This document shows, piece by piece, positions 7,410-44,436 of a stretch of DNA of 64,000 bases. The notes beneath the pieces were generated by a model. The model did not search any database. It was not told where the DNA came from and saw only the letters and a program-made list of their open reading frames with translations. The first letter of the stretch is position 1. Each line of letters starts with the position of its first letter. The stretch lies in the NCBI GenBank assembly GCA_033239005.1, contig BSQZ01000028.1, positions 4,082,501-4,146,500 on the forward strand. The letters are read 5' to 3'. This stretch comes from Lamellibrachia satsuma. Lineage: Eukaryota; Annelida; Polychaeta; Sabellida; Siboglinidae. The translations under genes and the position numbers were made by a program.

Positions 7410-8170
7410 GGCATGCCATATTGGCAAGAAACAAGAATCACAATGCATAAAATGAATGCCAGCCATGCTGCATCATCCACCCCAGGCAAAAAAAAATGTA
7501 AATTAACTTTAAATGTGACACATTAGGGACTGGTCATTCGTTGTATGGGTATATGAATAGAACGTTGAAAACGCTAGCTTGAACTAGGTGCCAGACTGGG
7601 ACCGGTCGTGCTCCAGAGGACAGGAGAAAGCATGCCACATTGGCAAGGAAAAGGCATCACAATGCATAGAATGAATGCCAGCCATGCTGCATCATCCACC
7701 CCAAGCAAAACAATGCAAATCCACTATAAAATGTGATACATTAGGAACTGTTAATTTGTTGTATGGGTATGAATAAAACGTTGAAAAAGCTAGCTTGGAC
7801 TAGGTGCCAGGCATTGGCAAGAAACAAGCATCACAATGCAGAATGAATGCCAGCCATGCTGAATCATCCACTCCAGGCAAAACAATGCAAATTCACTTTA
7901 AAATGTGAAACATTAGGAATTGTTCATTCATTGTATAAATAGAATAAAATAAAACGTTGAAAAGCTAGCTTGAACTAGGTGCCAGACTGAGACCGGTCGT
8001 GCTCCAGAGGACTGGAGAAAGCATGCCACATTGGCAAGAAACAAGCATTACAATGCAAAGAATGAATGCCAGCCATGCTGCATCATACACTCCACACAAA
8101 ACAATGCAGTCACCTGAAAATGTGGCACATCAGGGACTGTTCATTCGTAACATGGGTATACGAATATAAT
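7410..8170. repeat. Long direct repeats at 3' end of the retroelement (4 copies)
   Basis: The motif atgccagccatgctg recurs near 7456, 7677, 7847 and 8066, with matching flanks (cacattggcaagaaacaag before it; ttcattcgttgtatgggta and aaaacgttgaaaa after it). Period is about 220 bp for two intervals and 170 bp for one, which lacks an internal segment (accggtcgtgctccagagga). The last copy overlaps the recombinase 3' end. These may be the 3' terminal repeats that DIRS/Ngaro elements use in place of LTRs. Confidence 0.75.
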
Positions 8171-9089: not shown

Positions 9090-10776
9090 GGTGCAGTCTG
9101 CCGTGCTATTCCCTCCTGAAACCGTGACAGTTTATCGGCAATGATATTAGTCTTCCCTGGTATATGTTTCGCCTTAAAATAGACATTAAATTTCATGGCG
9201 GCCACGACCAACCTTCTGATCAAACGCATAAGGTGAGAATTCTTCGCTGACTGCTTATTGATCACTTCTACCACTGCTTGATTATCAGTAAGGAATAAGA
9301 CTGAATGGTTTGCCATATACCTCCCCCATAACTCCAATGCTGCTACAATAGGATACAATTCCAGCACTGCAATGTTGTAATCTTGCCAAATAATAGGAAA
9401 TACACCATTAAACCACCGTGAACCAAAAACTGCGGCAAATCCCTGAGTAGATGCAGCATCTGTGTACAGCTTAATGGATTCTGAAGAAATCCATTTACTG
9501 TTGATAAGCATTGTCACGCCATTGTAAGAAGACAGAAAGCAATGCCATGCGGCTAAGTCGGCACGGGCTTCACTGTTCAACCTGACATGGTGGCTAGGTT
9601 TAGAAATACCAATGGTAAGGTTAATGAGGCGGCGAAGAAAGGCTCTCCCAGGTGATATTACTCTGCAGGCAAAATTTAGCAGACCAATGACAGATTGCAG
9701 TTGCCGCAATGAAATAGAGCGGCATTTACGTATGCCCTCAATGGCTGACTGCATCTTCTCTACCTTATCACCAGGAAGACGCGCCTCCCATTTGACAGTG
9801 TCAAGCTCAATGCCATGTACAGTAATGCATGTAGATGGCCGACATGTCTTCTGATGTTTTATAGGAATTGATAGTTCCTCAGCAAGGACAATGAATTTGT
9901 TGAGATCATGGAAGCATGTCAATGAGTTGGGAAGACCAATGAAAATGAAATCGTCCAAAATATGTGAAACAGCCAAGGCGCCACGGGTCTGTACTATCCA
10001 TTGTAGTGCACAGGACAACCTTTCAAAGATACGACACGATTCAGCACAGCCCATGGGCAGACATCTGTCATAGTAAAATTGTGACTCCCAGGTGAAACCA
10101 AATAGATGATAACACGATGGGTGATTGGGGATGATACGAAATGCATCCTCAATGTCAGTCTTACCGATTAATGCCCCCGACCGAAGTGACTAACCAGGGA
10201 AATAACATGGTCTAAAGTCTCATAGTGTACCATGGTGAATTCCTTTGGAATATATTCATTAACAGAGCTTCCCACAGGATACAAGAGGTTGTGGATAATA
10301 CGGAATTCATTTGGTTCTTTCTTGGGCATCACACCAAGTGGGGATGATTGATAATTATGAAATGGTGGTGCAACGAAAGGATCAGCTATGCGTCCAATGT
10401 GAAGTTCTTTCGACAGCTTCCTTTCTACTATGTCTGTATGATGTGATATTGATGGGTGGTTATAAGAGAAGCGTAGAGAAGGGGTTCCATGGTAGTTAAT
10501 CCTGAATCCTTTTCTAAAACCGTCAAGGAGAAAAGCAGCTTCTGTTTGATCATAGCCGATCAATGCTTGCTGTAACGCATCAGGGTTTATTGGGGTTGGG
10601 AGTGTTACGTTGGCGACAAGAACTGGCAGGATGGGGGGCTTGGCACTTTGAGCACACATGCTTGTAATGGCATGGTCTGGATGTGCATTTGTTGTTGCGC
10701 TGGTACATCCAGCAGTAACCGGCTGGAAAGGGCTGGGAGGGACGGGTTGGTTTGTTGGGAATAGTGGCTGGAGCAC
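9032..10776 (-). pseudogene. Reverse transcriptase / RNase H of DIRS-like element, one frameshift
   Basis: The N-terminal part (10776-10168) contains finger motifs SPLGVMPKKEPNEFRIIHNL. The palm follows as KTDIEDAFRIIPNHP, then the catalytic ILDDFIFIG (the YxDD box). RNase H follows with LYTDAASTQG, AVLELYPIVAALELWG, LTDNQAVV and HIPGKTNIIADKLSR. The two parts are in different frames: the break lies in a run of five C (10174-10178, plus strand), where one more base would restore continuity. Everything downstream is open to 9032. This is either a single inactivating deletion or, less likely, a recoding site. The N-terminal part overlaps the end of the Gag-like gene. Confidence 0.88.
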
Positions 10777-11734
10777 GACCTATCCCCATCTGGACTTGTC
10801 TAGTGTACATACACCGGAAGAATAAGTCCCACCTAGGCTGGTCCCAAGGGAAGTTCATAGGGTTTGATTGCCTAAATGAGCGAAATTGTTCGTCATACTG
10901 CCGCCAATCAAACGGTGGCCCCTTTTGGGCAATATCACGAACAACCTCACAGTACTTAAACATACCAGGGGCTACTTCCGGAAATCGCTGAGTGTACACA
11001 GCTCCAAACACCAAGAAGGCAGAAGTCCACTGGTCAATGGTGGAAATCTGCCTTCCTTTACTCTGGGGCATGACGGAGATAATTTGCTGAGAGGAACCTG
11101 TTGACACAGTTAATTGCTGTGGTTGCACCTTATTGACTAATTCAAAAAAATCTACATATTCGTTAGCCCAGATTTTGGACCGTAAGCGGTCGGACAGATC
11201 AGCCCCCAGTTCGGTAGTGTGCAGGGGTAGAGATTGGGGTGTGGTCTGCTCACCAACATCACCACGTAGCAGAGAGTTGATAGCCCCTGCCACCGCACCG
11301 TCCATCTGATCGTCAGCGCTGCTGGTCAGTGGATGCCCTGTCAAAGGCACCTGCGTGACAACATCCGTTGCTGGCAGCACAGGCAGCTGGTCCCTGGTGC
11401 CTGGAGATGCAGAGCGGTCTTCGCGGAGTTGTCGGAGAACCTCGCGTGTGACCTGAGCGATGATCGCAGTCGTCTGATGTACACCCTCGGTCGAACCACC
11501 AGGTTGAGTAGAGGGTAGTGGCCCAGTCACAGGATTCCCCATATCATCAGGACGTCCCGCTGCAGCACTGACGACTCGGCGACGCCTTGGCAGTGGTGTC
11601 AATGCTAGTGCCGTCTCAGCAGGGCGTTTCTTCTGGGCTGCTCGGCGCTGCGATGGCGGTCTGGTCGCTGAATCTCGGGTGGTGGACGGTCGTCGAGGTG
11701 GCATACTACAACATGGGATGCAAAAGCCAGACAC
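10580..11734 (-). CDS. Gag-like protein with Cys-rich C-terminus
   Basis: A 384-residue frame; the methionine at 11704 (MPPRRPSTTRDS) is the likelier start because the first ten residues are atypical. The N-terminus is basic and Pro/Arg-rich. A central region (DQWTSAFLVFGAVYTQRFP, WDQPRWDLFFRCMYTR) matches the core of DIRS/Ngaro-associated ORF1 proteins. The C-terminus has a zinc-knuckle-like series, CWMYQRNNKC, CHYKHVCSKC and HPASSC. It probably coats element RNA in cytoplasmic particles. It overlaps the RT frame by about 200 bp in another frame. No stop or frameshift is seen. Confidence 0.75.
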   Translation of the reverse strand: MSGFCIPCCSMPPRRPSTTRDSATRPPSQRRAAQKKRPAETALALTPLPRRRRVVSAAAGRPDDMGNPVTGPLPSTQPGGSTEGVHQTTAIIAQVTREVLRQLREDRSASPGTRDQLPVLPATDVVTQVPLTGHPLTSSADDQMDGAVAGAINSLLRGDVGEQTTPQSLPLHTTELGADLSDRLRSKIWANEYVDFFELVNKVQPQQLTVSTGSSQQIISVMPQSKGRQISTIDQWTSAFLVFGAVYTQRFPEVAPGMFKYCEVVRDIAQKGPPFDWRQYDEQFRSFRQSNPMNFPWDQPRWDLFFRCMYTRQVQMGIGRAPATIPNKPTRPSQPFPAGYCWMYQRNNKCTSRPCHYKHVCSKCQAPHPASSCRQRNTPNPNKP

Positions 11735-11759
11735 TGCATCCAGACTGCAACAATCATGC

Positions 11760-12170
11760 CATTACAGTGTGATAACTGGTGCAGTAACCCACAGAGACAC
11801 CACTCTGATCTGCTCACACGGCCAAACCAGTGGTACCAAAATATGCAATCATAACCGGTACAGAGATACTGCTCTGAAATTGCTGATACAGAAGGCATAA
11901 CTAATGGCATGATTGTGTAAATAGCAAATGTGCAATACTTACAGGACAGAGGTACTACTCCGACACTGTTCGCATGAACACATGTATAAACAAGCACCAA
12001 ACCGTTGCAATCATAACTGGTACAGAGATACTGCTCTGAGATTGCTGGTGCAAAACACATATGAATGGCATATGTGAACAAACAAAACACCAAACCGTTG
12101 CAATCATAATTATTACAGAGATACTGCCCTAAGATTGCTGGTGCAAACAGGTGTCATAAAACTGGAAATG
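11760..12170. repeat. Imperfect direct repeats between SGNH and Gag genes
   Basis: The segment caaaccgttgcaatcataa followed by cagagatactgctctgagat and tgctggtgca occurs three times clearly (from about 11840, 11998 and 12090) with a weaker copy from about 11765. It sits in the leader between the SGNH gene and Gag. Function is unknown; it may be part of an internal promoter region. Confidence 0.65.
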
Positions 12171-12348
12171 TCAACCATAAACATGACATAAACATGTAAT
12201 AGTAAACAAATACATTACATACTACTGAATTAAGGTTTTAACGGACATTATCGTGATCGATAATAACCAGGTGCATAAGGCGAAATAGTAAAATAACAGT
12301 CTACTAACGTTGACCATTGTGCACACATTAGCATCGGGCAGCAGCAAA

Positions 12349-12954
12349 CTAGGCTGCACCCCTGATGCTACGGAAATATTTACGCATGCCAGCTTCATTG
12401 AGATGCACCCCCATCCTATCAAAGTATTGCTCCCAGTTGGCGTGCATGCCTCGGTGCCGCCAATAATGGATATGGGGTAGATCTTTAGTCAAAGCCTCGA
12501 TCGAACGGTTGACCGAGAATCTGGCGTTATTGAAGTCGGCACACGTAGGTTTACAACGCCGGCCGTGGGGCCGAAACGTCACCACACGTGGAAGTATCTG
12601 GCATATCAACACTTCCGCAACCGAATCGACTGCTGCTACAAACTTAGCACATTCAACAATGCGAGCAGCAAGAGTAGCTGGTAGAACGTTATCACGAGAC
12701 AAATCGTTCGTACCGATATCGATGATGACAACCCGTGGAGCTAGCTCGCGAACAAGTGGGATTTCGTGAAATAGTTTACTCAAAGTGAGGCCCCCAATGC
12801 CATGGTAAAAAACATGTTTATACTGTGCCTGAAGTCCCAAGTCTGCATCAAAATCATGTCTAGGACTGCGGACATATTCACATAAGCGGCGAACAAAGCT
12901 ATGACCAATAATTAAGAGGTCAGAATCGCCATCAGCAGAAAGAACATCCATCAT
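12349..12954 (-). CDS. SGNH-family hydrolase-like ORF of the retroelement
   Basis: I take the methionine at 12954, because the truncated second copy of this gene (25502) starts at the same MMD and the extra upstream residues are hydrophobic and not shared. About 200 residues. SGNH blocks: GHSFVRR (GDS-like, nucleophilic Ser), GIGGLTLSKL, IDIGTNDLSRD (GTND block) and DRMGVHLNEAGMRKY (Asp-x-x-His). All catalytic residues are present. Some Ngaro-type and CR1-type retroelements carry SGNH esterase-like genes of unknown role. Here it lies 5' of Gag, at the front of the element. Not membrane-anchored if the later start is right. Confidence 0.8.
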   Translation of the reverse strand: MMDVLSADGDSDLLIIGHSFVRRLCEYVRSPRHDFDADLGLQAQYKHVFYHGIGGLTLSKLFHEIPLVRELAPRVVIIDIGTNDLSRDNVLPATLAARIVECAKFVAAVDSVAEVLICQILPRVVTFRPHGRRCKPTCADFNNARFSVNRSIEALTKDLPHIHYWRHRGMHANWEQYFDRMGVHLNEAGMRKYFRSIRGAA

Positions 12955-13507
12955 GTAAGCAACTGTCGTTAGGAAATTCAAAATGGCGGAGAAAACGAAG
13001 ACAAAGGAAGGAGGGAAAACAACGTGCAACTTAATGAAGTATAGGCAAGGGCTATAAAGCAATACAAGCGTATCAATTATTGAACCGTACTGTACTGGTA
13101 ATCCCAGGCAGAAAAATAGTAATATAAAAAAAAACAATGCCAACCTTTACCTTTTCTCGAAAGAAAAACTTCCAATCCGCTGTGACATAGGACACGTCCG
13201 GCTTTGATTAAATCAGCAGCAGAAAGGGACGAGGTAGTGTAGCCTCGTTATGGTTTACGCATCGCGCAATGCGGACCGGTTCACGTGCAGCAACCCGGTA
13301 CTTTATAACTAATAACAATTTCAATCAATCACATTTTCACCTCACATTATACAAATACTATTTTAACATGCGTAAAAATATTAATTTAATGGTCAACAGC
13401 TACGGCCACATGTTCACAGAATATCTTGAAAGGGACACAATACAATCATCCAGGTAACTCTTTGGGATGACATCACTGTGTAGTGGTTGAGGTCTGTCAT
13501 CTTACTG

Positions 13508-14436: not shown

Positions 14437-15567
14437 AAATATACACTCAGTCCTGCACAGAATGTTAATGATGATGAACTCGCTCGTTGTCTACTCGTGG
14501 GCCGTAGAGACGGGCACATGCTCTGATGAGTTGGATGGCAGAGTGGTCGCCACCCTCCTACTCTTCCCAGTACCCAAAGATCCTTTGCTGCAAGTCGACA
14601 AAGACCTTCCTCTGGTGCCTCCACAACTTTCCCTCGGACACCAGCCGCACCTGGACAGGGATTATACTTGACTCGTTGTGCAGCAATGCCACCAGCATGT
14701 ACAAGTTCCTGCCAGCACGACCCCAGGTGCTGAGGCACGTGTGCCAGCCCTCAAGGTCGTTATTCGTGCGCACGGACTGGAAGTACACACACAACATGCT
14801 GGTGCGGCTGATGTACTGTAGAAGCGCAGTCGGCATGGCTGTTGCTTCTTGTTCCAGTCGTCAGAAGATGGGTGTGATGTGTTGTGCAGGCAGAAAGCAC
14901 GACGCCATGACCTTCTGCAGGAACTTGAAAGTATTGTCGTCACTGGCATATGCAACTTGCAGTCCGCACTCCTGGATGCGCCTCCAGATGGCCTGGGTAA
15001 AATGGAAGGCGCATCCCTTCAACTCCACGGCTGGAAAGACGACACATGCAGCGTCCTCGAAATCAAGGACCATTCGTTCAATCCGTCGACGTGGCAGCAT
15101 GGCACACAGTTCTCTAAACACTGCTACATAATCAGTCTTGCGGTGGCATGACATGACTGATCTAAAAGGATGTTCGTCGGCCTGTTTCTTGGACACGTGG
15201 GAAATTGCCGCAACAATATCCATCCAAGACTCAGTTGGTGGACGTGTTCTCTCGGCCCTGGCAAGAAAGTCACTCCTTCTTGGCGGACATTGGCTCGACA
15301 GTTCACTGTCTTCGATCGAAGTGTACAACGCCAGGTAGTACATTGTCTGGTACGTCGTTTGACGGTATAGGAATACCCTACTGTATCAAAAAGTTTATCT
15401 CTTCCTCTGATTGCCGTCTTATTGACGATCTTGTTGTTCACAACACTGACACTCACATCCACTCGATCTGGGTTGGCGATTGACGATTCCTGGAGATTGT
15501 CTGGTCTTGGTGGCACTGGGAAATCAAGATCCATAAAGCCATCATCAATATCCATTGGAATGGACAT
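14437..15567 (-). pseudogene. FLYWCH zinc finger plus MULE transposase, frameshifted
   Basis: Minus-strand reading begins at 15567 with an acidic N-terminus and a FLYWCH-type finger (KLFDTVGYSYTVKRRTRQ, TWRCTLR, VNCRANV, H-x-H). In another frame follow YVAVFRELCAMLPRRR, VLDFEDAACVVFPAVELKGC and FHFTQAIWRRIQ, the DDE core of Mutator-like transposases. In a third comes SVRTNNDLEGWHTCLSTWG, the conserved C-terminal motif. At least two frameshifts separate these parts. Domain order and spacing equal the common animal FLYWCH-MULE protein. The function would have been cut-and-paste transposition; it is inactive now. Confidence 0.8.
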
Positions 15568-15602
15568 GGCTGACTGATCCCCTGTGGTGGAGTGTTTGGT
15601 AG

Positions 15603-15618
15603 CATGACGTACGTCATG
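15603..15618. other. 16-bp perfect palindrome containing two CRE-like cores
   Basis: catgacgtacgtcatg reads the same on both strands and contains tgacgt twice in inverted orientation. It sits between the MULE remnant and the 18-bp minisatellite. A regulatory role is only speculative. Confidence 0.4.
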
Positions 15619-15627
15619 TTCAGTGGC

Positions 15628-15830
15628 GGAGTTGGCGATCTGGGTGGAGTTGGCGATCTGGGTGGAGTTGGCGATTTGGGTGGAGTTGAAGATCTGGGTG
15701 GAGTTGGCGATCTGGCTGGAGTTGACGATCTGGCTGGAGTTGACGATCTGGCTGGAGTTGGCGATCTGGCTGGAGTTGGCGATCTGGCTGGAGTTGACGA
15801 TCTGGGTGGAGTTGGCGATCTGGGTGGAGG
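15628..15830. repeat. 18-bp minisatellite, about 11 units
   Basis: Copies of ggcgatctgggtggagtt, with variants ggctgg and gacgat. Because 18 is divisible by three, all frames stay open, which explains the repetitive frames on both strands. Confidence 0.93.
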
Positions 15831-15849
15831 TGTGGAGATGATGGCATAA

Positions 15850-16102
15850 TTACTTCCAGAGATATATTATATGACAGTCAATAAAATAAGCTGAATACAA
15901 CGGTAAAAATCTTATATGGCTAATGATTCCAGAGATATTCTTCCAAATGTGAAATACGGCTGCACATGGTTTAAAAACTGGCCGTCATAGTTATGTTTGT
16001 GAGAAAACCTTTCATAACTATCAAACTACTTACTAATTAGAAGTTTCCATAACCATTATATATATATGTTTTGTCTGAATACAACAATCAAAATATTTTG
16101 AT
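15850..16102. other. Flank left of the viral block, no gene
   Basis: AT-rich DNA without repeats or frames. Similarity between the two viral units stops at 16103, so this is the probable host side of the left junction. Confidence 0.5.
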
Positions 16103-16230
16103 GCTAGCCTACCTGGGGGTGCACTACTGCATAGCATATAAGTATATATAAGATGTGTAGTGCATCCCTCCGGAGGGATGCACTACTGCATAGCAGTATA
16201 TGTATATAAAAGATGTGCTTCACCACATGG
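16103..16230. repeat. Unit A terminal region: duplicated TATA-rich block around a 30-bp palindrome
   Basis: Bases 16103-16157 match 20133-20187 of unit B with one mismatch. The piece gcactactgcatagca, followed by an AT-rich TATA stretch and aagatgtg, then occurs a second time (16180-16218). The two copies are joined by a perfect 30-bp palindrome at 16157-16186 centred on ccctccggaggg. Unit B has only one copy and no palindrome. TATA-like strings on the plus strand might promote an antisense transcript, but no convincing plus-strand gene is seen. Confidence 0.8.
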
Positions 16231-16522
16231 TAAACCATATCTCTCCTACTCTAATCTTACTCCTACCATATATTTTTTTTTCTGTCGGGGCGAGCAGGCC
16301 TCCGCAGTGCCTACTTTACGAGTACATATTGTTAGTAAAGTTCAATAATAATCCTGCTCTAACTTTCGCTCTACCTGCTGCAATTATGCTAGTACTACAC
16401 TCTTCTAGCAGACTTTCTAACTTAGCAATGCCATACAAACATGTTACTTTAGTTCTTTCTGCTTTAGCTATAATGTCATTGCAGTCTTGAATGAGTTCTT
16501 GCTGTTGTTGCGCCAGTGTTAG

Positions 16523-18199
16523 TCAATCGCAATCAATGTCATCATCCATTTCTTCGGTGCAGATCAAATCCATCGTGCTGATCTCTTCTTGGAAGTCTTC
16601 CTGCTCTTCGTTGCGGAAGTCCAGTTGTCTTTTCGGAGCTTCCTTCTTTGGCGCATCCGGTGCTGGTCGTTTGGTGCCTGTTGGTGCTGGTGTTTTTGTT
16701 GCTTTCGTGATGAAGTCACGGAATTCATCCTCGTCTGAACTGTGTTCTTTTGGTATGTCTGGTGTTACGTGATGTGCCCACAACACCTGCCACATGGCTG
16801 GATTCAGTTGTCGTTTTGTGAGTTTCAAGAATGGAGCCGGCTTTAGGAACTTGTATTCAATCATGCGCGATTGAAATGCGCTTCGCTCAGTACTGCCACC
16901 CTGCGAGTAGAATGGGTAGTTTGCCGTAACAATTATTGGCAGTCTTGGCACCCTGGCACTTGGTTTGTTTTTCACAGCGACGTCAGTTGGAGTGCCTTCT
17001 GCTAGCTTTTTGAAGGTCTGCAACGTCTCTGGAGTGAAAACCGGCTCTTCGATTAGTGCAATACTGGCATTCGCCAGTTCCATGAATGGGAACGATGTCG
17101 TTCCCTGTTTGGTGGCATTATATTTAAACAATGCCACCACACTTCTTGCTATGTCGCTCTTTCCCGAGTTTGGTACGCTGTGCAGAAACATCAAGTTCAG
17201 CTTTGGTCGTGCTTTCAAAATGATGGTCCACACGTCGTCTGTGAACATTTGTGTGTTCACTTCATGCAGTTGGCAGAGTATGCTCAGCGTTTGGATGCTT
17301 TCGTCGACCGATAGGTATTTCGTGTCTTCTGTGAACTTGAGCCAATTCATGGTCAACATCCTGTGTCGGAAAGTATGTTGTATCTCAAGTGTCCGATCCA
17401 TTGCGAACACCTTTAACAGCGTACTTTCGAACATAGGATGTACCAAGGCACGCTCAAAGTTGTCTGCGCTAGGTGCATTCACCGCTCCTTGCATTAACTC
17501 TTCCCGTGTGTGGTACTGATGAGTTGTCACTTGCCATTTCAAGTAACGGAACAGGCTCATGTTCTTGCCCGAGGTCAGCTTCAAGATAGGCTCTTTTTTG
17601 TCGTCTACTGTTTCTGCATCCTGGTCGAACCGCTCCCTTCGCGTGGGAATATCCGGCTTTGGCACATGTTTTCCCAGAACGAGCGATTGGAACCTGTCCA
17701 TCATCGGATTAGTAGATAACATCCAGGTCGTGCGTGGTTCCTTGGCCAGGTAGTTTGCCCAGCTGGCTGGGAAGCGTGTCTGCTGACTGGGAGGCACGTT
17801 GCCACTGTTTCCCGCGATTTCTTTGTGTTGAGCTGTTGCCGACATCCATATTTTGTCGCAGCCTGGACGCGTCTGGTGCACGTAAGTTACGTGAAAGTGA
17901 TTGTACCTGTTCCAGTACTTGGATTCACTGCATTCATTTGGTGCATGGTACACCACATGTGCGTCGCGTCTGTCGACGAATTGACAGAATTTCTTGGCAG
18001 CCGAATATACGGATATGGTTCCGTCATCCATCAGGTCTGCGTCTGGCTGAAGTATCCAGTCTTTGTCGCTGTACTTTATCTGGGTGTTTTCGGTTGCATG
18101 TTTGCTTTTTTCAAGTGCCTCATATGCAAGAGTGCAGTTGACATCCCATGTCTCATGCCTACGGGTCCTTGACATAGTGCAGTCTGGTCCCGTGACCAC
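16523..18199 (-). CDS. Parvovirus-like NS (rolling-hairpin initiator/SF3 helicase), unit A
   Basis: A 558-residue open frame. It has an HUH nickase motif HFH at residues 101-103 with a candidate active Tyr at about 150 (SWANYLAKEP). The SF3 helicase carries VPNSGKS (Walker A, residues 342-348), SIALIEEP (Walker B, 379-386) and IIVTANYP (sensor/Walker C, 422-429). The first Walker A glycine, kept in unit B, is Ser here. The C-terminus is Lys/Pro-rich then acidic. Comparison with unit B shows homology starts only at Trp18; the first 17 residues are VP-coding sequence read in a shifted frame after a 259-bp deletion. It would nick and unwind viral ends. The frame is intact, but the authentic start and splice acceptor are gone. 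Confidence 0.88.
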   Translation of the reverse strand: MVTGPDCTMSRTRRHETWDVNCTLAYEALEKSKHATENTQIKYSDKDWILQPDADLMDDGTISVYSAAKKFCQFVDRRDAHVVYHAPNECSESKYWNRYNHFHVTYVHQTRPGCDKIWMSATAQHKEIAGNSGNVPPSQQTRFPASWANYLAKEPRTTWMLSTNPMMDRFQSLVLGKHVPKPDIPTRRERFDQDAETVDDKKEPILKLTSGKNMSLFRYLKWQVTTHQYHTREELMQGAVNAPSADNFERALVHPMFESTLLKVFAMDRTLEIQHTFRHRMLTMNWLKFTEDTKYLSVDESIQTLSILCQLHEVNTQMFTDDVWTIILKARPKLNLMFLHSVPNSGKSDIARSVVALFKYNATKQGTTSFPFMELANASIALIEEPVFTPETLQTFKKLAEGTPTDVAVKNKPSARVPRLPIIVTANYPFYSQGGSTERSAFQSRMIEYKFLKPAPFLKLTKRQLNPAMWQVLWAHHVTPDIPKEHSSDEDEFRDFITKATKTPAPTGTKRPAPDAPKKEAPKRQLDFRNEEQEDFQEEISTMDLICTEEMDDDIDCD

Positions 18200-19785
18200 A
18201 GGTCTGATGTTTGGTGTGTGTCATCACGTGGTACGTGCCATCCGACGTATTGTGGATTGCCAGACATTGTTTCTATCTGGATTGTGCTTTCGTACACTAC
18301 AATGCATACCCACAGTTGTTTTGTCGGTTCATTTGTTGCCGTTAGCATTGGAGGTATTTCTAAGTATGCTATTGGCGGTGGTTCTGATGGCTCCATTGGC
18401 ATTTGTGTTAAGCAGCTACTACCTGGAATTGGTGTGTCTGCGCTACTTGCTCGTATTTGTGCTGCCTCGTATGTGCCTCCTGTGTGTTTTGATATTGACA
18501 CGCCTGTCCCGTTTGGTGCTCAGTTGTACGTGTCCATTACGTTTGACCCAATTTCTATGGGAATTCCTTTCCATATGTTTAGCGGTATTCCCACGCAGCA
18601 CTCGTCGCCCCCCATTGCGAACGATTTGTTGTTAAACCAGAACGGATTTTTGTTTAGCCACGTGTATGCCCATGTGTCACCCGAGTAGATGAAGTTTAAG
18701 TTGTCAGTGTTCCAAATGGACATGAAGTTATCCATGGAAATGCCAGATGCTGCCGAGTCCCCGTTTAAGGATGTTTGGTGTGACAGCCACTTTCGTGGAA
18801 TTATCCGCGTTTGTGATATGGCTCTCAGTGTCCCTTCTCTGTCTGTTGGTATGTTTTGTGTCATGTTTGTGTTTGGCAAGTCTTTGTGAGTGAAGTGGCT
18901 CTGTATGAAGAAGTTGTGTTTGGTGTCTACGTAGCCGATGAAGTAAGGTCTAGTGTTTATCGCTAAACTGGTCGACACTGCCCCGCCTACTTGTTGTACT
19001 GTGTCAGTTAGCGGAATCAGGTTTGTTAGTTTGAACCCTGCCGATTGTACTCTCCATGCTGTTGACGCCATTAAGTGTGTTTCTATTTCTGCCCGTGTCA
19101 TTGACGTGTTCAGATAGTGATATGGTAAGATACTACCTGCATGATTGAATTGTAGTTTACCGTATTTGTTGTCTTTGTAGTCTGTTAGTGGTATGTAGTC
19201 TACAGTGTTGTAGTCGGTAGTGTCTGTTGTTATGTAGTGTTGAAATGTTCTGTTGAAATGCAGTGTTCTAATGCCTGCTGTATCGCCGTCATTAGCTTTT
19301 GTATCACCCGGTATAACCACTCCTGAAATAACCCCGGACGGACCCACGGCTGGCTCGCCTGGGTTGTCCATGACATATGGTGTGAGATTGCCACGTAAGT
19401 TGTAGTCTCGTTTGTTATTGTAATCTTGCGGATGATTACTTTCTGATTCTGCGATGTGTTTAGCGCGTTTGTTTGCTGCGTCTTGTTGTTCGCTTTCCTG
19501 TTGTCGTTTTTCACCTCTTCTAAGCATTGAATCGCTAGCATATCCTGTTAATTTGTCTGCGTATGTTTTCCCGCGTATTATTCCTGCTATTAATGACCCG
19601 GATGTTGATTGTGTTTCATGTAAACAGTAAATTAGTTCTTCGTCTGCTAGTTCTGTTGGTATATCTGGATCACCATATTGTCTATCATGTGTCCTACAAC
19701 ATTCATCAACGTCTCCTACTGCTGTTTGACTAAAGTCCCAGGTTCCCGGCCCACAGTAGTTATGCCCAGGAAAGTGTAAAGGCAT
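18151..19785 (-). pseudogene. Parvovirus-like capsid protein VP with PLA2 domain, unit A
   Basis: The first ATG at 19785 gives MPLHFPGHNYCGPGT. HNYCGPG (residues 8-14) is the calcium loop and THDRQY (32-37) holds the catalytic His-Asp of the parvoviral phospholipase A2, used to leave endosomes. The rest is a capsid-type protein (WRVQSAGFKLTNLIPL, FMSIWNTDNLNFIYSGDTW). The frame stops at 18520 with TGA where unit B has TGG (Trp). It then continues open as KHTGGTYEAAQ and SCLTQMPMEP up to PVGMR at 18151, where a deletion fuses it to NS. So there is one nonsense mutation and a lost C-terminal tail. Confidence 0.87.
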
Positions 19786-19794
19786 AGTACTCAC

Positions 19795-19843
19795 CGTTCA
19801 GCGCCTTCTGCATCAGCAGATTCCGTTCCCGCATTTCTTCCAT
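19795..19843 (-). CDS. Predicted leader exon for spliced NS mRNA
   Basis: The ATG at 19843 opens 16 codons (starting MEEMRERNLL) plus one base, then meets a consensus 5' splice site g|gtgagt at 19794-19789. Joining this phase-1 end to an acceptor of the type seen at 22130 in unit B would continue in the NS frame with Asp-Asn-Gly. The VP start at 19785 lies a few bases downstream, inside the would-be intron and in another frame. Unspliced RNA would therefore favour VP and spliced RNA NS. In unit A the acceptor is deleted, and in unit B the leader is missing, so the pairing is inferred across units. Confidence 0.5.
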
Positions 19844-19901
19844 CTCTTCTGATTGGTTCGTGAGCGAGCTCCCGACTGGCCTTTGTCCTCTGTACAGCCT
19901 G

Positions 19902-19908
19902 TTATATA
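19902..19908 (-). promoter_or_regulatory. TATA box of the viral VP/NS promoter
   Basis: tatataa on the minus strand, about 60 bases before the leader ATG and about 105 bases inside the terminal hairpin. Position and orientation fit a promoter for the VP/NS transcription unit. Confidence 0.55.
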
Positions 19909-20011
19909 CTCGTCTATGCGTGTTCTCATTGGTTGATCTAAGCTTGGTGTTCATTGGCCAGTGGGAGTGTTGAGTGACACATGTCATTGTGTTTCATCCT
20001 CCAATGAATAC

Positions 20012-20131
20012 ACCTTACTTTCTTAGGAGGCGGTCGCAGTGCAGTAAGCAGCCCCCAGTTGCACATCATCGCTATCTACAACTAGCTGGGATGCGTTACT
20101 GCACTGCGACCGCCTCCTAAGAAAGTAAGGT
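20012..20131. repeat. Parvoviral terminal hairpin at the junction of units A and B
   Basis: Arms 20012-20047 and 20096-20131 are perfect 36-bp reverse complements (left arm begins accttactttcttaggagg). The 48-bp centre holds a weaker inner stem (cccagttg against caactagctggg) around a short loop, giving a branched foldback of about 120 nt. It lies exactly between unit B's NS 3' end and unit A's VP promoter. Palindromic telomeres are the replication origins of parvoviruses, and head-to-tail concatemers share one at each junction. Confidence 0.93.
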
Positions 20132-20132
20132 T

Positions 20133-20190
20133 GCTAGCCTACCCGGGGGTGCACTACTGCATAGCATATAAGTATATATAAGATGTGCTT
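20133..20190. promoter_or_regulatory. Hairpin-adjacent TATA-rich terminal sequence, unit B
   Basis: Begins gctagcctacccgggggtgc and contains catataagtatatataag. It matches 16103-16157 of unit A except for one base. It is palindrome-rich in TA, so it could serve either strand. Its role (telomere flank, antisense promoter or 3' processing) is not known. Confidence 0.5.
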
Positions 20191-20221
20191 CACTATTTGG
20201 CAAAGCCACATCTTCGCCTAC

Positions 20222-20227
20222 TTTATT
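20222..20227 (-). terminator. Polyadenylation signal AATAAA downstream of NS, unit B
   Basis: AATAAA on the minus strand about 165 bases after the NS stop and before the terminal hairpin. The corresponding unit A bases are mutated. Confidence 0.6.
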
Positions 20228-20392
20228 CTAACTCTATCTATGCCCCCCACCTTTTTTTTCCTGTCAAATGACGCAGCCTTTGCAGTTCCTATTCTACATG
20301 TTGTTAACATAATTTTCTAATAACATAACTCTAATTCTATCTATACCATATTGTTCATCAATGTTCACATTGGTCATCTCATGCTCATCTAG

Positions 20393-22129
20393 TCACGGCA
20401 TGTCGGCGATGTCCTCACTGCACAGAATGTCAATGTCATTGACTTCTTCATCTGTGTCGCTCTGACAAATATTCTCGACTTCATCCATGAAGGCCAGTTT
20501 TTTTTTTTTGCTTCTTGGCCGGCGCTGCTTTTTGCCGTGCAACTGGTGTTTTGCGTTTTGGTGCCTGTGTTGTTGGTGTCTTGTATTTTTTGGTGGCCAT
20601 GTTTAGGTACTCGCGAAATTCGCCCTCGTCCGAGCTCGATTCCTTTTGCACGTCTGGTGAAATCTTGTGCGCCCACAAGTACTGCCACATGGCCGGATTG
20701 AGCTGTTTCTTTCGTCATTTTGGAAATGGAGCCGGTACATTGAGCTTGTAGTGGATCATTCTGGATTTGAATGCGTCTCGTTCGGTTGCCCCACCTTAGC
20801 TGTAGAAAGGATAGTTTGCCGTGATTAGGATTGGCAATCGTGGCACTCGTGCGCTTCCTTTGTTTTTCACGCTGACGTCAGTGGGAGTGCCTTCTGCCAG
20901 CTTTTTGAAAGTTTGCAGTGTTTCATTGGTGAAGACGGGTTCTTCAATTAGTGCGACGCTGGCATGTGCGAGTTCCATGAATGGGAACGATGTGATGCCT
21001 TGTATGGTCGCGTTGTATTTGAATAGCGCGATCACACTGCGTGCAATGAACGATTTGCCCGAGTTAGGCACCCCCTCGAGGAACATCAGGTTTTGTTTCG
21101 GCTTGGTCTTGTTCATTATCGTCCACATGTCGTCTATGAATGTTGTCATGCAGATCCCGTGTAGGTCGCACCACAGCCAGAGTGTTTGCATGGATTCGTC
21201 GACCGTCAAGTATGATGTGTCTTCGGTGAATCGCAGCCAATTTGTCTTGAGTAGTCTGTGCCGGAAGGAGTGTTGTATTTCCAAGGTCCAGTCCATCGCG
21301 AAGACCTTTTGCAGTGTGCTGTCAAACATTGGATGGACCAATGCTCTGTCGAAGTTATCCCCGTTGGATGCCGTGATACTGCCCTGCATTAGGTCCTCGC
21401 GAGTATGGTAGTTTCGTCTCACCACTTGCCATTTCAGGTACTTGAATAACGACATGTGTTTGCCGTTGACGAGTTGGAGGACTGGTTCTTTCTTGCTGTC
21501 GGTCTCTGTTTGTGGAGTGAAGCGCTCACTGCGTGTCGGTAGGTCCTCTTTGGGTACGTACTCGGCGAAGGTCTGTTCTTGGAATCTTGTCATCAGCGGA
21601 TTTTTGCTGAGCAGCCAGGTCGTACGCGGCTTCTGTGACAAGTAATTCGCCCACCTGGCTGGGTATCTTGTTTGTTGGCTTGGTGGGATGTTTCCAGTGC
21701 TTTTAGCCATCTCTTTGTGTTGAGCCGTCACATTCATCCATAACTTATCGCAGCCAGTGCGAGTTTGGCTGACATAAGTTAGGTGGAAGTGATTGTACTT
21801 GTTCCAGAATTTCTTTTCTGAACATTCATTTGGTGCGTGGTAGATGACGTTTACGTCACGTCTGTCGACAAATTGGCACAGTTTTGCCGCGGCTGATTTC
21901 ACTCTAATGCCATCGTCGTCTTGTAGGAAGTCGTCCGATGTTATGGACCAGTGGCTGCCGTTGTACTTTATTTGTTCGTTTGCGTTGGTTACTTTGCTCT
22001 CTTCAATGTGGTCGTACGCCTGGGCGGTCGTACGATCCCACAGTGGGTTTTGTTCGATGGGTATGTTGAGTTGGAATTGGTCCGGTGTTAGCCAAGGATA
22101 CACCATTTGATACATGATGACCCCGTTGT
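20393..22129 (-). pseudogene. Parvovirus-like NS, unit B
   Basis: Homology with unit A runs from DRTTAQAYDHIEESK to the acidic C-terminus. HFHLTY carries the HUH pair, GVPNSGKS is a canonical Walker A, SVALIEEP is Walker B and ILITANYP the sensor. The frame is open to 20796, where TAA replaces the Gln of unit A's YSQGG. An in-frame TGA follows near 20719. A shift in the A-run at 20498-20509 diverts the end; correcting for it, the acidic tail ends at 20393. An acceptor tttcag|ac lies at 22130, so residues before Asp-Asn-Gly-Val are intronic. Confidence 0.88.
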
Positions 22130-22212
22130 CTGAAATCATATAATTTCTATTATTTTTCGTATATCGTTTTTAATATCACATAGGCTTGTACTAATGGGTA
22201 CATAGTACTTAC
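22130..22212 (-). other. Predicted 83-bp intron before NS, unit B
   Basis: Donor g|gtaagt at 22213/22212 and acceptor atgatttcag|ac at 22130/22129 bracket an AT-rich stretch with stops in all frames. The donor lies just after the VP stop codon. Unit A has lost this intron through its 259-bp deletion. The acceptor's phase matches the leader exon at 19795-19843. Confidence 0.55.
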
Positions 22213-22245
22213 CACTTTGGTTACTCGTCTTTTAGCTGCAACAGA

Positions 22246-23670
22246 TTAACGCATGTATGCAGGATTGGTGCCAGTAGCAGCATCATTTAGTGCATAGTTA
22301 CGCATTCCTACTGGACATTGACAGAGTGTTGTTCTGTCTTTTGACCACATGTCTGACCAGTGTGTGTGTTTGTTTTTGGTACGTTCCACCCGATGTATTG
22401 TGGATTGCCTGACATTGTTTCTATCTGTATCGTGCATTCGTAGACGACAGTGCACACCCAAAGTGATTTTGTCGGTTCATTTGATACCGTTAACATTGGC
22501 GGTATTTCAATGTATGCAATCGGCGGTGCCTCTTATGGCTCCATTGGCATTTGTGTGAGGCAGCTTCTTCCCAGCGTTGGTGTGTTTTTGTTTGTGGTTA
22601 CATTTGCGGCTTCATACGTGCCTCCTGAGTGTTTGCTCCAACTGGTTCCTTTTGCATTAGGAGCCCAGTTGTATGTTTGCATTACGTTTGAGCCTATCTC
22701 AACAGGGATGCCTTTCCATATGTTGAGTGGTGTCCCGTTATACGCTTCGTCATGTCCATACGCAAACGACATTCCATTGAACCAGAATGGATTACTGTTC
22801 ATCCATGTGTATTGCCAGGTATCACCTGCATACACAAAGTTCAGGTTGTCTGTATTCCATATGGACATGAAGTTTTCCATTGGGAGGTATGATTTGGGCT
22901 GGTCTACATCTATGTTAGTTTGGTATTTTAGCCAACCTCTGCTGACTATACGTGTCTGCTGTAGGCCCCATAGCATGCCCTGTGGTCTGTTGCGTGGTAT
23001 GTTTAGTTTCATGTTACCGTTTGGCAAGTCACCGTGAATGAAGTGACTTTGCTTGAAATAGTTGTGTTTGCTGTCTACGTAGCCTGAAGTATGGTCTAGT
23101 GTTAAGTGCTAAGTCCGTAGTGACTGTGCCTCCTACTTGTTGTACTGTGTCTGTTAGTGGGATTACATTTGTGAGTTTAAATCCACAGGATTGCACTCTC
23201 CACGAAGTAGCCCCCATCAAGTGTGTTTCAATTTCTGCCTGTGTCATGGAAGCATTTAGGAAATTGTATGGGACAGTGCAGCCGGAGTGGTTGAATTTGA
23301 GTTTACCGTATTTGCCATCTTTGTAGTCCATTAGTGGGATGTAGTCAACCGAGTTGTAGCTTCCTTCGTCTGGTGTTATGTAGTGTTGCATTGTTCTGTT
23401 GAAATGTAATGTTCTAATGCCAGCAGTGTCGCCATGATTCGCCTTAGTATCTCCAGGCACCACTGTCCCGGATATGATACCGGATGGACCAACAGCTGGT
23501 TCACCTGTATCCATTTCGCCTCCCGCGTTGTTGTTATTTTGGTCGTGCGTATCCGCTTTCGATGCAGTATATTTGGCGCGTTTTTCGGCAGCCTGCTGTT
23601 GTGTGATTTCGTGTTGTCGTTTCTGTGCTCTGCGTAGCATTGAATTGCTTGCATACCCTGTTAGTTTGTC
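22246..23670 (-). pseudogene. Parvovirus-like capsid protein VP, unit B, 5'-truncated
   Basis: Homology starts at DKLTGYASNSMLRR and continues through LHFNRTMQHYITPDEGSY, SWRVQSCGFKLTNVIPL and MENFMSIWNTDNLNFVYAGD. Defects: a frameshift near 23083 (after NTRPYF), a TAA at 22533 where unit A has Ser (after MPMEP), and a frameshift near 22360. Correcting for these, the protein ends with GTNPAYMR at 22246. The phospholipase motif present in unit A is absent because the unit is cut at 23670. This unit shows the VP C-terminal tail that unit A lost. Confidence 0.85.
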
Positions 23671-23689
23671 TACTTCTTTTTTTTCTTTA

Positions 23690-27142: not shown

Positions 27143-28490
27143 TGTACTGATGATATGTGGTCTGCAGTACATGGACATCTAAACACACCGAGGCAGCACT
27201 TGGGTGTTGGATGATGCAGTGGAGAACAAATCTGTGTCGTAATTTGAAGTCATCTCTTGTATCTTGCTTATCGCATTGCAGCACACACACTGAGCTTTGT
27301 TTGGCATGCTCTCACATCTATCACATGTACACCTGTGAAATCACAATTGTTTTGAAAATGGCATGTTCTAAATAGTTATAAACTTGCAATTTTGTTTTGA
27401 AAAATGTTTTTTCGAAATTTGTTTTGTGTACAGTATAAAAGGAAATGGTCCTCCTCTTCCTGCCTCCGTCCTGGTCCTTCGCAGTGTAGGCGAAATTGAC
27501 AGGCTCCCGCATCGACATCTTCTGTCATTTCCCCAAGCATTGTAATCAGTTTGACAGCTGCTGAAAAGATGATAAAGTCAGTGAAAACAAAATGAATAGA
27601 CACTGTCGGAATACACTTACCTACTTAAAATGGAATGTGCACCACTTGTTTTCTATCTTAAGGCGACACAATATGGTGAAATCAATTATTGTTATTTCTT
27701 ATCACAGCTTTCTGAATTTTTAGCACAGTATTAAGTATATTTTTATTTTTTTGGACCCCCTTTTGACCCTTATCATGGTGGCCATTTTGAATTTGAATGG
27801 TATCAGCTGAAATCCTACATCTTGATAATGGGCTGGCCAAATCCACTGTAACTTTGTGTGCACATAACTAAGATACACCTGCATGTTATAACTTCGAGTT
27901 TTTGTTGATTGCTTTTGTAGTTTTTTTTTTTACGATTTTATAAAATTCTTGTTACAAAACATCAAAATGAAATATGAACATTTTGTAATGTAGAATTGTT
28001 GTCTTATAATATTTTTTTCAATTTCTTGACGCTATAACATGCTGACCAATCTTGTGGTGAATCACTGAAAATTTCAAAGGATTTGGTTGGAAAATAGCCA
28101 AGATGTACCCAATAAGAGAAGCCAGTTCAGCTGGAAATAATTGTAATGGAGAAAAACAACGTCAAAGTTTGAGAACATTTCAACATTGAATTGTGTAACA
28201 AAAAATAGACACAGTGTCCTGAAATTACACACAGACATTCTCCAATGTATGTTCTATCTGAAAAGGTAAAGTAGAAGAAAATAGACTGAAAAATAAAAAA
28301 TATTATGAAACATATACTTTGTGAAACACAAATAAGAATTATTTTCAAAAACGTCACTATGGATATAATGTTCACTGCTAATATAATGTTCACTGTTGAC
28401 TGTCTGCTTGAGCCTAAAATGCCCCGTCAGCATAGTCGGATGATGCAGATTCTGCCGCCTTCGTTCATGCAAGGTGTCGAGCCTGCTGAG
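27143..28490. other. No gene recognised
   Basis: AT-rich DNA; short frames here lack protein-like composition. Confidence 0.5.
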
Positions 28491-28499
28491 CCTATCGAG

Positions 28500-29961
28500 T
28501 TGCTGTTGTAGCCTCATGCTTAGCCTGGCGCTTAGCCTGGCGCTTAGCCTGACTAAGTCCGTCTTCTCTGCAGATGCCAGCAGGTGGACTCCTGACAGCA
28601 CCTGCATCACGTCACACTGATTCTTCATCGTCACTTCGACACCAGCGTTGAATTCTGATACCGCGTTGCACGTTGCAGAGACAATACACTCCAGGCCGAC
28701 AAAGCTAATCTTGGGGCACTTGTTCCAGATGACCGAGTGCACGGTTTCATTATTGTTTTGTGTTTCCCCGAGCTTGCAGCGTTCCAGCAGGTCCACGTGT
28801 GCCAGTCGGGTGTACACGCCCCTGACGTGTTCTGCGACGTCGGATGAGAGTGGCGTGCCCACATTCGTCCGATGTGCTCCTGGCTCCTGCCCGGTGGCAA
28901 GCGCCTTCTGGTAGAAGCACCAACTGTCAGCTCCCACCGGGCAGTGGTCGTGTTGGGGCTTCTCATCAGTGGAGATGGTGTGGTCAAATGTTGCAAGTAT
29001 AGCATCCCGCATCCCGTTGATGTCTTTGGGGTGAGCACGCACAGCCTTGCCGTAGTAGGCTGTCAACTTGTTGATGGTTGCCTGGGTAAGTTTCCCAAAG
29101 CCCCGAGGGTGATGCCAGCCTTCTTCCCCGATGCTGCTAACTTGCGAAGGGCCGTGCTGAGTCGTTTGGCGACGTGGTTGATGCACTCCGCCTTCTCTGC
29201 CTCCACGTCGCCGTACACACGCAAGTTGGTGAGGTGGTTGAATGTCCTGGCATCTCCGTCGCCGAGCATGGTCGTGCAGCGAAAGTTGCGGTTCATGGAG
29301 CGGGTCCACAGCAACTCCGCAGCCTTCATCTCTATGCCGCCGGACGTCCCCCTGTAGTTCCTGTTGCACTGTGGCCATGCCGCCGTGTCAAGTGCTTGCG
29401 TAAGCACAACGCTGGCAATAGAGCGACATGACCTGAAGGTCGATCACACGGCCTGTGAATACTTCCACAACACAGACGCGTGTCATCCACAACCCATCAA
29501 AACTGACGATCAAGTTGATGGTGTCATCTTCTCCAATCGATGGGTCTATGTCACGGTAGACACGATGGACAACGTCAGCTGCATTGTCGAGCATCCGTGT
29601 CACGACAACCTTGTTTGCGTCAAATGATGTGTGCATGCTTGGTGAAGGAAGTGTGCGTCAGTGGCTTCATATCAAGGAAGCAGCACAACTTGACCAGCCC
29701 AGCATGGCCAACACCCATGTCCATTGATGCAGCTACTACCTGTTGCAAAACGATGAACGGCGCATTCCCTGCAGTTGACCCCTTGATGCGGTCGGACGTG
29801 AGGGTGGAGTTCAGCACAGCTCCATACTCTGTGCAACAAGTCTCCGTTGCAGCGACGAGGCCGAGTAGGTGGTCAACGACACGGATCACCAACGATGCTG
29901 CTGATATAACTAGCCATTGTTGTGGCATCGAGCTAAAACATGCGCATAACATCAATTGCAA
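28500..29961 (-). pseudogene. Mutator-like transposase-domain protein, frameshifted
   Basis: In minus-strand order: MDMGVGHAGLVKLCCFLDM (29961-29620 frame), RMLDNAADVVHRVYRDID and INLIVSFDGLWMTRV (29636-29388), GGIEMKAAELLWTRSM with TTMLGDGDARTFNHL and INHVAKRLSTALRKL (29407-29063), then KLTQATINKLTAYYGKAVR, HCPVGADSWCFYQKALA, ERCKLGETQNNNETVHS and WNKCPKISFVG. This is the full motif series of the widespread invertebrate Mutator-like transposase domain, with SFDG, LGDGD and NE as DDE candidates. At least three frame changes break it. The last frame continues past the domain through a short repeated ARLSARLS stretch. Confidence 0.8.
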
Positions 29962-44350: not shown

Positions 44351-44436
44351 ACTCACTCATGGAATTGCCTAAAACAAATTCCAACTTTGCATAAGTATGC
44401 CTTCCACTTGCAGCTACCAAAGCTGGTTTCTACAAA

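What the first reader, a model, noticed from the sequence alone, without database searches (positions are those of the whole stretch)
16103..23670. Two parvovirus-like genomes integrated head to tail
Two complete sets of VP plus NS lie on one strand in the order VP-NS-hairpin... read as unit B, hairpin, unit A. Seen directly: HUH, Walker A/B and sensor motifs in both NS proteins, a phospholipase A2 motif in VP-A, and collinear homology across both units. Known: parvoviruses replicate through head-to-tail and other concatemers. Inference: a dimeric replication intermediate, or two related viruses joined in one event, entered the germline.
Basis: partly seen in the sequence, partly recalled or inferred. 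Interest (0 to 1): 0.92.

Follow-up and report, generated by a model that had tools for sequence, protein, structure and literature searches.

The report
Reverse-order endogenous parvoviruses in tandem
A marine animal genome, probably a tubeworm's, carries long one-way rows of inherited parvoviruses whose two main genes stand in the reverse of the usual order, and the pair in this window are two damaged members of that family.

Summary
The window holds two incomplete endogenous parvovirus units, head to tail on the minus strand: A 16102-20131, B 20132 to about 23682. NS is parvoviral by Pfam, sequence and fold; VP-A has a phospholipase A2 domain and a weak, below-cutoff capsid match. Unit B lost its 5' hairpin and PLA2 domain; A has a nonsense codon in VP and lacks the VP/NS junction.

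Two things matter more. (1) The unit runs hairpin-VP-NS-hairpin, whereas a review read here puts NS left and VP right in all parvoviruses. A lone copy (C16, NS end truncated) has inverted repeats on both sides. 18 of 18 donors found follow a 49-nt leader and precede the VP start; 24 of 24 scored junctions have an acceptor 14 nt before the NS start, in phase. VP is thus predicted to be an intron of NS; no RNA was seen. (2) The genome has 63 NS matches. One 78-kb locus has 72 viral pieces, all on one strand, with synonymous sites mostly saturated, yet many open frames and 10 of 11 terminal palindromes perfect.

A replication dimer is rejected. Best reading: diverged viruses accumulated in one orientation beside resident copies, plus local duplication. 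Host: probably Lamellibrachia.

The parts
16102..20131 (-). Unit A, 5'-hairpin-VP-NS-3' terminus, about 4.03 kb
   Evidence: Both units end in the same 56-nt terminus, 98% identical; 5' hairpin at 20012-20131
20132..23682 (-). Unit B, 5'-truncated VP then NS and 3' terminus
   Evidence: Local match to VP-A begins at 23682; 3' terminus 20132-20187
20012..20131 (.). 5' telomere hairpin of unit A: arms 20012-20047 and 20096-20131 (36 of 36) plus an inner imperfect stem
   Evidence: related sequence near C1, C50 and C31 units
16102..16157 (.). 3' terminal repeat of unit A, same as 20132-20187 of unit B
   Evidence: shorter, weaker matches at C1, C31 and C50
16157..16186 (.). 30-nt palindrome inside a partly duplicated 3' terminus
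   Evidence: Sequence; fold; second partial terminus 16175-16234
16523..18220 (-). NS-A, 565-codon open frame: HUH motif, SF3 helicase; native start missing; Ser in place of the first P-loop Gly
   Evidence: model pLDDT 73.2, fold matches AAV Rep68 and parvoviral NS1
18520..19797 (-). VP-A with PLA2 domain at its N-terminus, ends at a nonsense codon 18520-18522
18076..18519 (-). Continuation of VP-A in the same frame behind the stop; its last part departs from the VP of P0026
19795..19843 (-). 49-nt leader exon, 5' splice site at 19794, VP ATG at 19783-19785 (predicted)
19900..19909 (-). TATA box starting 115 nt upstream of the splice donor; three CCAAT within 260 nt
20796..22169 (-). NS-B, main open part (457 codons)
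20389..20877 (-). NS-B C-terminal part in another frame
   Evidence: P0012 residues 294-335
22150..22240 (-). Small ORF between VP and NS in unit B, partly preserved (28 codons; approximate ends)
22533..23108 (-). VP-B C-terminal half
23029..23682 (-). VP-B N-terminal half without PLA2, other frame

Best explanation
The two units are damaged members of a family of endogenous parvoviruses in an annelid (probably Lamellibrachia). The family's genome order is hairpin - promoter - short leader exon - VP (with PLA2) - small ORF - NS - hairpin, all on one strand. One promoter lies upstream of VP. Unspliced RNA would give VP; splicing the leader to a site just behind the VP stop would give a protein of about 50 aa; splicing to a site 14 nt before the NS start would give NS, so VP is an intron of NS. 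NS would nick and unwind terminal hairpins as parvoviral NS1/Rep does. Head-to-tail rows arose mainly because already diverged viruses integrated one after another, in one direction, beside resident copies, helped by local duplication. Shown here: order, termini, splice-site geometry, copy number, orientation, open frames, purifying selection. Inferred: that splicing happens, that NS nicks these hairpins, that resident telomeres act as landing site.
For: Order and termini: the lone C16 unit has 127-nt inverted repeats, 100% identical, on the two sides of VP-NS. Of 23 non-overlapping palindromes within 900 nt of viral pieces, none lies in a gene; at C31 there are 11, of which 8 lie between an NS end and a VP and 3 between an NS end and an NS fragment. 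10 of the 11 are perfect, 1 mismatch in 595 arm positions; over all 23, 15 perfect and 14 mismatches in 1172. Transcription unit: 18 of 18 donors found have a 49-nt, phase-1 leader and a TATA box 109-127 nt upstream; CCAAT in 13 of 18. 24 of 24 junctions with a recognised NS ATG have an acceptor 14 nt upstream, so 49+14 is in frame; 23 of 24 keep a small ORF of 32-37 codons. The L. satsuma gene model P0003 begins with the 16-residue leader of the C16 unit, followed by NS. Second clade: the N-terminal extension of P0009 reads a VP C-terminus (P0029) in another frame, score 241.6 against at most 27.7 in 30 shuffles. Multiplicity: 63 NS and 58 VP matches; at C31 all 72 pieces are on one strand, and VP-to-NS gaps are 131-134 nt in 15 of 20. 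Selection: one NS pair has 36 synonymous and 3 nonsynonymous differences; of 389 NS pairs only 11 have unsaturated synonymous sites. VP has dN/dS well below 1. PLA2 Ca-loop in 14 of 14 and catalytic His-Asp in 13 of 14 VP copies with an N-terminus. Homology: Pfam, PDB profile hits to NS1 and Rep, to AAV VP1 over the PLA2 region and weakly to penaeid capsids; fold matches.
Against: No RNA was seen, and whether the P0003 model rests on RNA is unknown. The C16 copy lacks the last part of NS (matches 1-487 of 545), and its repeat there resembles its 5' telomere, so it is not an undamaged genome. Physical neighbours at C31 are on average closer relatives (Mantel r 0.34, 3 of 5000 permutations as high, 18 NS pieces; neighbour p-distance 0.30 against 0.38 overall), as duplication would give. 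Two neighbouring C31 units share one rearrangement, and C19 holds a near-identical repeated stretch, so duplication is real. Perfect palindromes could be kept by conversion between arms. Truncations occur at both ends of units, without the one-sided pattern a nick-primed model predicts. VP synonymous divergence is lower than that of NS (closest 22 pairs dS 0.02-1.16), and two close VP pairs have dN/dS near 0.35-0.4. Same-strand order alone does not prove site-specific integration. The VP fold is unproven: the model failed (pLDDT 31.6). No relative was confirmed in viral contigs.
Confidence: 0.7

Rival explanations
1. The rows grew by tandem duplication and unequal exchange from one or a few insertions, and divergence happened in the genome.
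For: Neighbours are somewhat closer than random; duplicated units at C31 and C19; NS and VP distances disagree for some units (NS 0.32, VP 0.07), as exchange within an array would also give.
Against: Only 11 of 389 NS pairs have unsaturated synonymous sites, while many frames are open and C31 palindromes have 1 mismatch in 595 arm positions; neutral in-place divergence of that depth would break both. The row mixes lineages whose NS proteins differ at 62-64% of positions between neighbours at both its edges.
Confidence: 0.25
2. The host keeps the copies, as antiviral proteins or as a one-strand source of antisense small RNAs (piRNA-cluster-like), and this selection explains orientation and open frames.
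For: Uniform strand at C31 and purifying selection. Endogenous IHHNV clusters called piRNA-like are in print for shrimp (PMC9357335, passages).
Against: TATA box, leader, both splice acceptors, small ORF, PLA2 residues and terminal hairpins are kept, which looks like selection on a whole virus rather than on one gene. The shrimp clusters are scrambled in reading direction, unlike this. A small-RNA role would not keep frames open.
Confidence: 0.12
3. A parvoviral replication dimer, or two viruses joined before entry, integrated here in one event.
For: Clean junction at 20131/20132 with the unit A hairpin at the joint.
Against: Units only about 70% identical; the same arrangement recurs at other loci with more units.
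Confidence: 0.08
4. The true unit is the usual NS-VP, and VP-NS is only the phase in which a concatemer is read.
For: In a long row the phase is arbitrary; the C16 copy has a truncated NS end.
Against: None of 23 palindromes lies in a VP-to-NS gap or a gene; the lone C16 copy is bounded by inverted repeats as VP-NS and the lone C1 copy has a relative of the window hairpin before VP and a weak terminal match after NS; VP-NS gap near 133 nt, NS-VP gap -14 to 1170 at C31; leader and acceptors in phase across VP.
Confidence: 0.03

Closest known systems
Parvoviridae, Hamaparvovirinae and Metalloincertoparvovirus (IHHNV/PstDNV, chapparvoviruses, PmMDV)
   Same: About 4 kb, one coding strand, NS1 with HUH and SF3 domains, capsid stretch with weak matches to IHHNV_capsid (below Pfam's cutoff), PmMDV 6wh3, and capsids 9nek and 3n7x, terminal hairpins
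   Different: VP precedes NS; VP keeps PLA2, which the penaeid genera and PmMDV lack (PMC11357303, passages)
Chapparvovirus splicing (NS-NP-VP)
   Same: One conserved upstream promoter, large introns, small extra ORFs (PMC6631224, passages)
   Different: There VP is reached by splicing over upstream genes; here the geometry is the mirror: NS would be reached by splicing over VP
Adeno-associated virus Rep68 and site-specific integration at AAVS1
   Same: NS model matches Rep68-AAVS1 complex chains best (9bc5, E 7.8e-15); integration driven by a hairpin-binding nickase is the proposed analogy (recalled)
   Different: Here the proposed target is the resident viral telomere; not tested
Endogenous IHHNV clusters of Penaeus monodon
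   Same: Clusters of parvoviral copies in a marine invertebrate
   Different: Those are scrambled in order and direction (PMC9357335, passages); here units are ordered, same-strand and partly open
Parvovirus-related sequences in annelids (Francois et al. 2016)
   Same: Two annelids reported with parvovirus-related sequences; the study made Lamellibrachia transcriptomes (PMC5013282, passages and section 5)
   Different: No gene-order or array description of annelid copies in the parts read

Membership tests
Parvoviridae | NS1 with HUH endonuclease and SF3 helicase | tested here: met
   Parvo_NS1 3.9e-10, above cutoff; invariant H108, F109, H110, N156, Y157 and most P-loop residues in 9 sequences; fold matches Rep68/NS1
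Parvoviridae | Palindromic hairpin termini | tested here: met
   Window hairpin 36 of 36; C16 189 of 189; 11 palindromes at C31; inverted repeats at both sides of C16
Parvoviridae | Genome about 4-6 kb | tested here: met
   Unit A 4030 nt with an internal deletion
Parvoviridae | NS in the left half, VP in the right half | tested here: not met
   VP precedes NS at the window, C16, lone C1, C21, C19, C50 and C31 units in which both were found; rule from PMC11357303 section 5 and a passage of PMC12298888
Parvoviridae | Jelly-roll T=1 capsid of ssDNA virions | tested here: inconclusive
   Weak matches to parvoviral capsids; VP model failed; virions not testable
Hamaparvovirinae | No PLA2 in VP (stated in the passage for the genera Hepan- and Penstylhamaparvovirus) | tested here: not met
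   Phospholip_A2_4 3.3e-7 in VP-A, 1.4e-12 in P0027
Hamaparvovirinae | NS and VP on the same strand | tested here: met
Densovirinae | Ambisense NS and VP (stated by PMC11357303 section 5) | tested here: not met
   Same strand
Endogenous viral element | Embedded in host chromosome | tested here: met
   Window is G000:C28:4082501-4146500; other read copies lie in contigs of 0.67-34.6 Mb
Site-specific integration system | Defined target nicked by the viral protein | not tested
   Needs junctions across species; genome DNA searches with the hairpin did not complete

The most novel reading that the evidence does not exclude
A deep-branching parvovirus lineage of annelids with mirror-image genome order, VP being an intron of NS, lives partly as chromosomal rows: incoming viruses use the hairpin telomeres of resident copies as an orientation-fixed landing site, so one locus has recorded many successive infections, and some copies are young enough to show both main frames open.
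Probability: 0.3. Interest if true: 0.92.

Novelty: new variant of a known kind. Interest (0 to 1): 0.76.

Why it matters
Gene order NS-then-VP is treated as a family rule in the reviews read here. A lineage with the order and the splicing logic reversed, with signs of it in two host clades, would change what defines the family and suggests modular rearrangement deep in its history. The 78-kb one-strand row of diverged but often open copies offers a natural record for asking how parvoviruses integrate and whether resident copies attract new ones.

Tried and rejected
Replication dimer: rejected on identity. Canonical NS-VP read out of phase: rejected on lone copies and on palindrome and splice positions. 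Relatives in viral contigs: four scans, none confirmed by tblastn. A profile search of the protein set returned 28 proteins, all of this family and none named as an exogenous virus, so no tree with exogenous NS1 was made; the subfamily is left open. VP structure: model useless. Polyadenylation: AATAAA/ATTAAA within 330 nt behind 12 of 25 NS ends (background 0.35 per 330 nt), none of them among the 8 of the window's lineage; not used as support. Host identity: only through two L. satsuma proteins 99.4% and 98.8% identical to copies here. Literature: no VP-first parvovirus seen in the listings (CC-licensed PMC only; listings, not full reading); one search looked for the host genome. Window flank frames: only one weak Pfam hit, zf-C4 0.037, below cutoff.

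Limits of the counts. The donor scan needs GTRWGT, at most 4 nt, ATGCC and a VP-like start; at least two further units (C31 left edge, C50) show leader and donor by eye but a changed VP start. The acceptor count sets aside 10 of 34 rows without a recognised NS ATG, some being second pieces of a counted unit; small ORFs there are as short as 25-28 codons. dN/dS used 29 NS pieces, 5 with internal stops, whose stop codons were skipped. The 20 VP and 20 NS blocks come from merging neighbouring pieces of one kind, so their alternation is by construction; three NS blocks of 3.0-3.4 kb hold more than one NS copy. The palindrome finder needs an exact 11-base seed, so decayed palindromes may be missed. 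In one search I had pooled only ten perfect palindromes that I picked; one search replaces that with all 23 non-overlapping ones, 14 mismatches in 1172. Not every match was read (e.g. a VP piece at C1:21.50 Mb). Proteins put on 'one contig' are so placed by equal contig length only.
Full report
What is in the window. Bases 16102-23682 hold two parvovirus-like units on the minus strand. In coding direction: VP-B, NS-B, hairpin, VP-A, NS-A. NS-A is open for 565 codons and NS-B for 457 before a frame change; both match Parvo_NS1. NS-A, and the profile of its family, match parvoviral NS1 and AAV Rep in the PDB. NS-A is modelled (pLDDT 73.2) with best fold matches to AAV Rep68. Of the 50 viral fold matches listed, one is a papillomavirus E1, three carry no name, and the rest are named as parvo- or densoviruses or belong to them by recall of the name. 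VP-A starts with a PLA2 domain (3.3e-7) and has a weak IHHNV_capsid match below Pfam's cutoff (0.012). The units are about 70% identical in DNA, and their NS proteins 66%.

They are not complete. Unit B's VP is recognisable only from 23682 inward, so PLA2, leader, promoter and 5' hairpin are gone, and VP and NS are each split over two frames. Unit A has a nonsense codon in VP at 18520-18522 and is about 250 nt shorter at the VP/NS junction. NS-A, though open, lacks its own start and has Ser at the first P-loop position, where relatives have Gly almost without exception.

The family in this genome. The window is G000:C28:4082501-4146500 of a 735-Mb assembly with 63 NS matches on nine contigs and 58 VP matches. 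I read 25 stretches. At C31 a 78-kb stretch has 72 NS and VP pieces, all on the minus strand. Merging neighbouring pieces of one kind gives 20 VP and 20 NS blocks; that they alternate is by construction, and three NS blocks hold more than one NS copy. VP-to-NS gaps are 131-134 nt in 15 of 20 (range 104-184), NS-to-VP gaps -14 to 1170 in 19. C50, C19 and one C1 locus have shorter same-strand rows; C16 and another C1 locus have lone units. By my tally, at least 11 NS and 8 VP copies are open over their length, and at least four units have both open; no copy is singled out.

Gene order. The lone C16 unit lies between inverted repeats (127 nt at 100%) with VP before NS; its NS lacks the last part (1-487 of 545), and the repeat there resembles its 5' telomere, so it is a damaged copy. 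The lone C1 unit has a relative of the window's 5' hairpin upstream of VP (81% over 108 columns) and a weaker match to the 3' terminus after NS (79% over 53). I then listed every non-overlapping palindrome within 900 nt of a viral piece: 23, none inside a gene. Of the 11 at C31, 8 lie between an NS end and a VP, and 3 between an NS end and an NS fragment. In another host clade the extension of P0009 upstream of NS reads a VP C-terminus in another frame, ending at the last residue of P0029 (score 241.6; 30 shuffles at most 27.7). A review states that all parvoviruses have NS left and VP right (PMC11357303, section 5 read); another says the same of the two halves, 'often' so divided (PMC12298888, passages). 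I saw no VP-first parvovirus in the listings.

Expression logic. Upstream of VP stand a TATA box and, in 13 of 18, CCAAT boxes, then a leader ATG, 49 nt, a 5' splice site, and the VP ATG 0-4 nt behind it: 18 of 18 donors found. Behind the VP stop are two acceptors. One opens a small ORF of 32-37 codons (23 of 24), the other lies exactly 14 nt before the NS ATG (24 of 24), both in phase with the leader. An annotated L. satsuma protein, P0003, begins with the 16-residue C16 leader followed by NS. So VP is predicted to be an intron of NS. This is geometry and an annotation model, not RNA.

How the rows arose. Of 389 NS pairs compared, only 11 have unsaturated synonymous sites, and one of these has 36 synonymous against 3 nonsynonymous differences. 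VP is also under purifying selection but less saturated (closest 22 pairs dS 0.02-1.16; dN/dS mostly 0.05-0.16, two pairs 0.35-0.4). At C31 10 of 11 palindromes are perfect, with 1 mismatch in 595 arm positions; over all 23 there are 14 in 1172. Neutral divergence in place would have broken both frames and palindromes, so the divergence is older than the integrations, or selection and conversion are at work. Against a pure serial-integration story: neighbours are closer than random, duplicated units exist at C31 and C19, and truncations occur at both ends. NS and VP distances agree overall (rho 0.87) but disagree sharply for some units (0.32 against 0.07), so modules have been exchanged. I therefore favour serial, orientation-fixed integration of diverged viruses plus local duplication, at about 0.6 for that part, and 0.9 for the gene order.

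Host. Two L. satsuma proteins match C16 and C50 copies at 99.4% and 98.8%, so the host is Lamellibrachia or close. Proteins listed with one contig length of 835,705 include five NS entries and one VP; one, P0019, joins parts of two NS copies in one gene model, which fits a same-strand row there too. Parvovirus-related sequences in annelids were already reported (PMC5013282, passages and section 5 read).

Scores. A parvovirus by its NS protein and termini, but failing the gene-order rule, and neither hama- nor densovirus by the stated traits. Novel as a variant; the mechanism of row growth is open.

Noticed in passing
16157-16186 and 16175-16234: The 3' terminus of unit A is partly duplicated around a 30-nt palindrome; short related termini at C50 and the C31 left edge match on the opposite strand (39 and 34 nt), which may be flip/flop orientation of a telomere.
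   Followed up: partly
15124-15849 and 14861-15385, minus: FLYWCH zinc-finger-like and MULE-transposase-like frames (both below Pfam cutoff) with an 18-bp tandem repeat beside the viral left end.
   Followed up: no
8130-13146, minus: Retroelement remains with reverse transcriptase/RNase H-like matches, a phage-integrase-type recombinase and a GDSL hydrolase frame.
   Followed up: no
44437-45429, minus: DDE_Tnp_1_7 transposase, E 1.5e-53.
   Followed up: no
28254-29387, minus: Frame with a weak Mutator-like transposase match below cutoff.
   Followed up: no
42524-43077, 43657-44353, 51244-51694, 61644-62010: Minisatellite arrays with units of 21, 70, 56 and 41 bp.
   Followed up: no
4057-4131, plus: tRNA-like sequence with CTA anticodon (ARAGORN calls it Pyl; Rfam tRNA 36 bits); in an animal more likely a tRNA-derived repeat.
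   Followed up: no
C24 copies (L024-L026) and C140 (L027): Short, broken NS pieces, on different strands at two C24 places, perhaps the oldest insertions.
   Followed up: no
proteins P0004, P0005, P0007-P0009, P0011, P0014, P0015, P0017, P0018, P0021: An eleven-row NS clade from unnamed sources; P0005 and P0015 share a contig length, which hints at rows in another host.
   Followed up: partly
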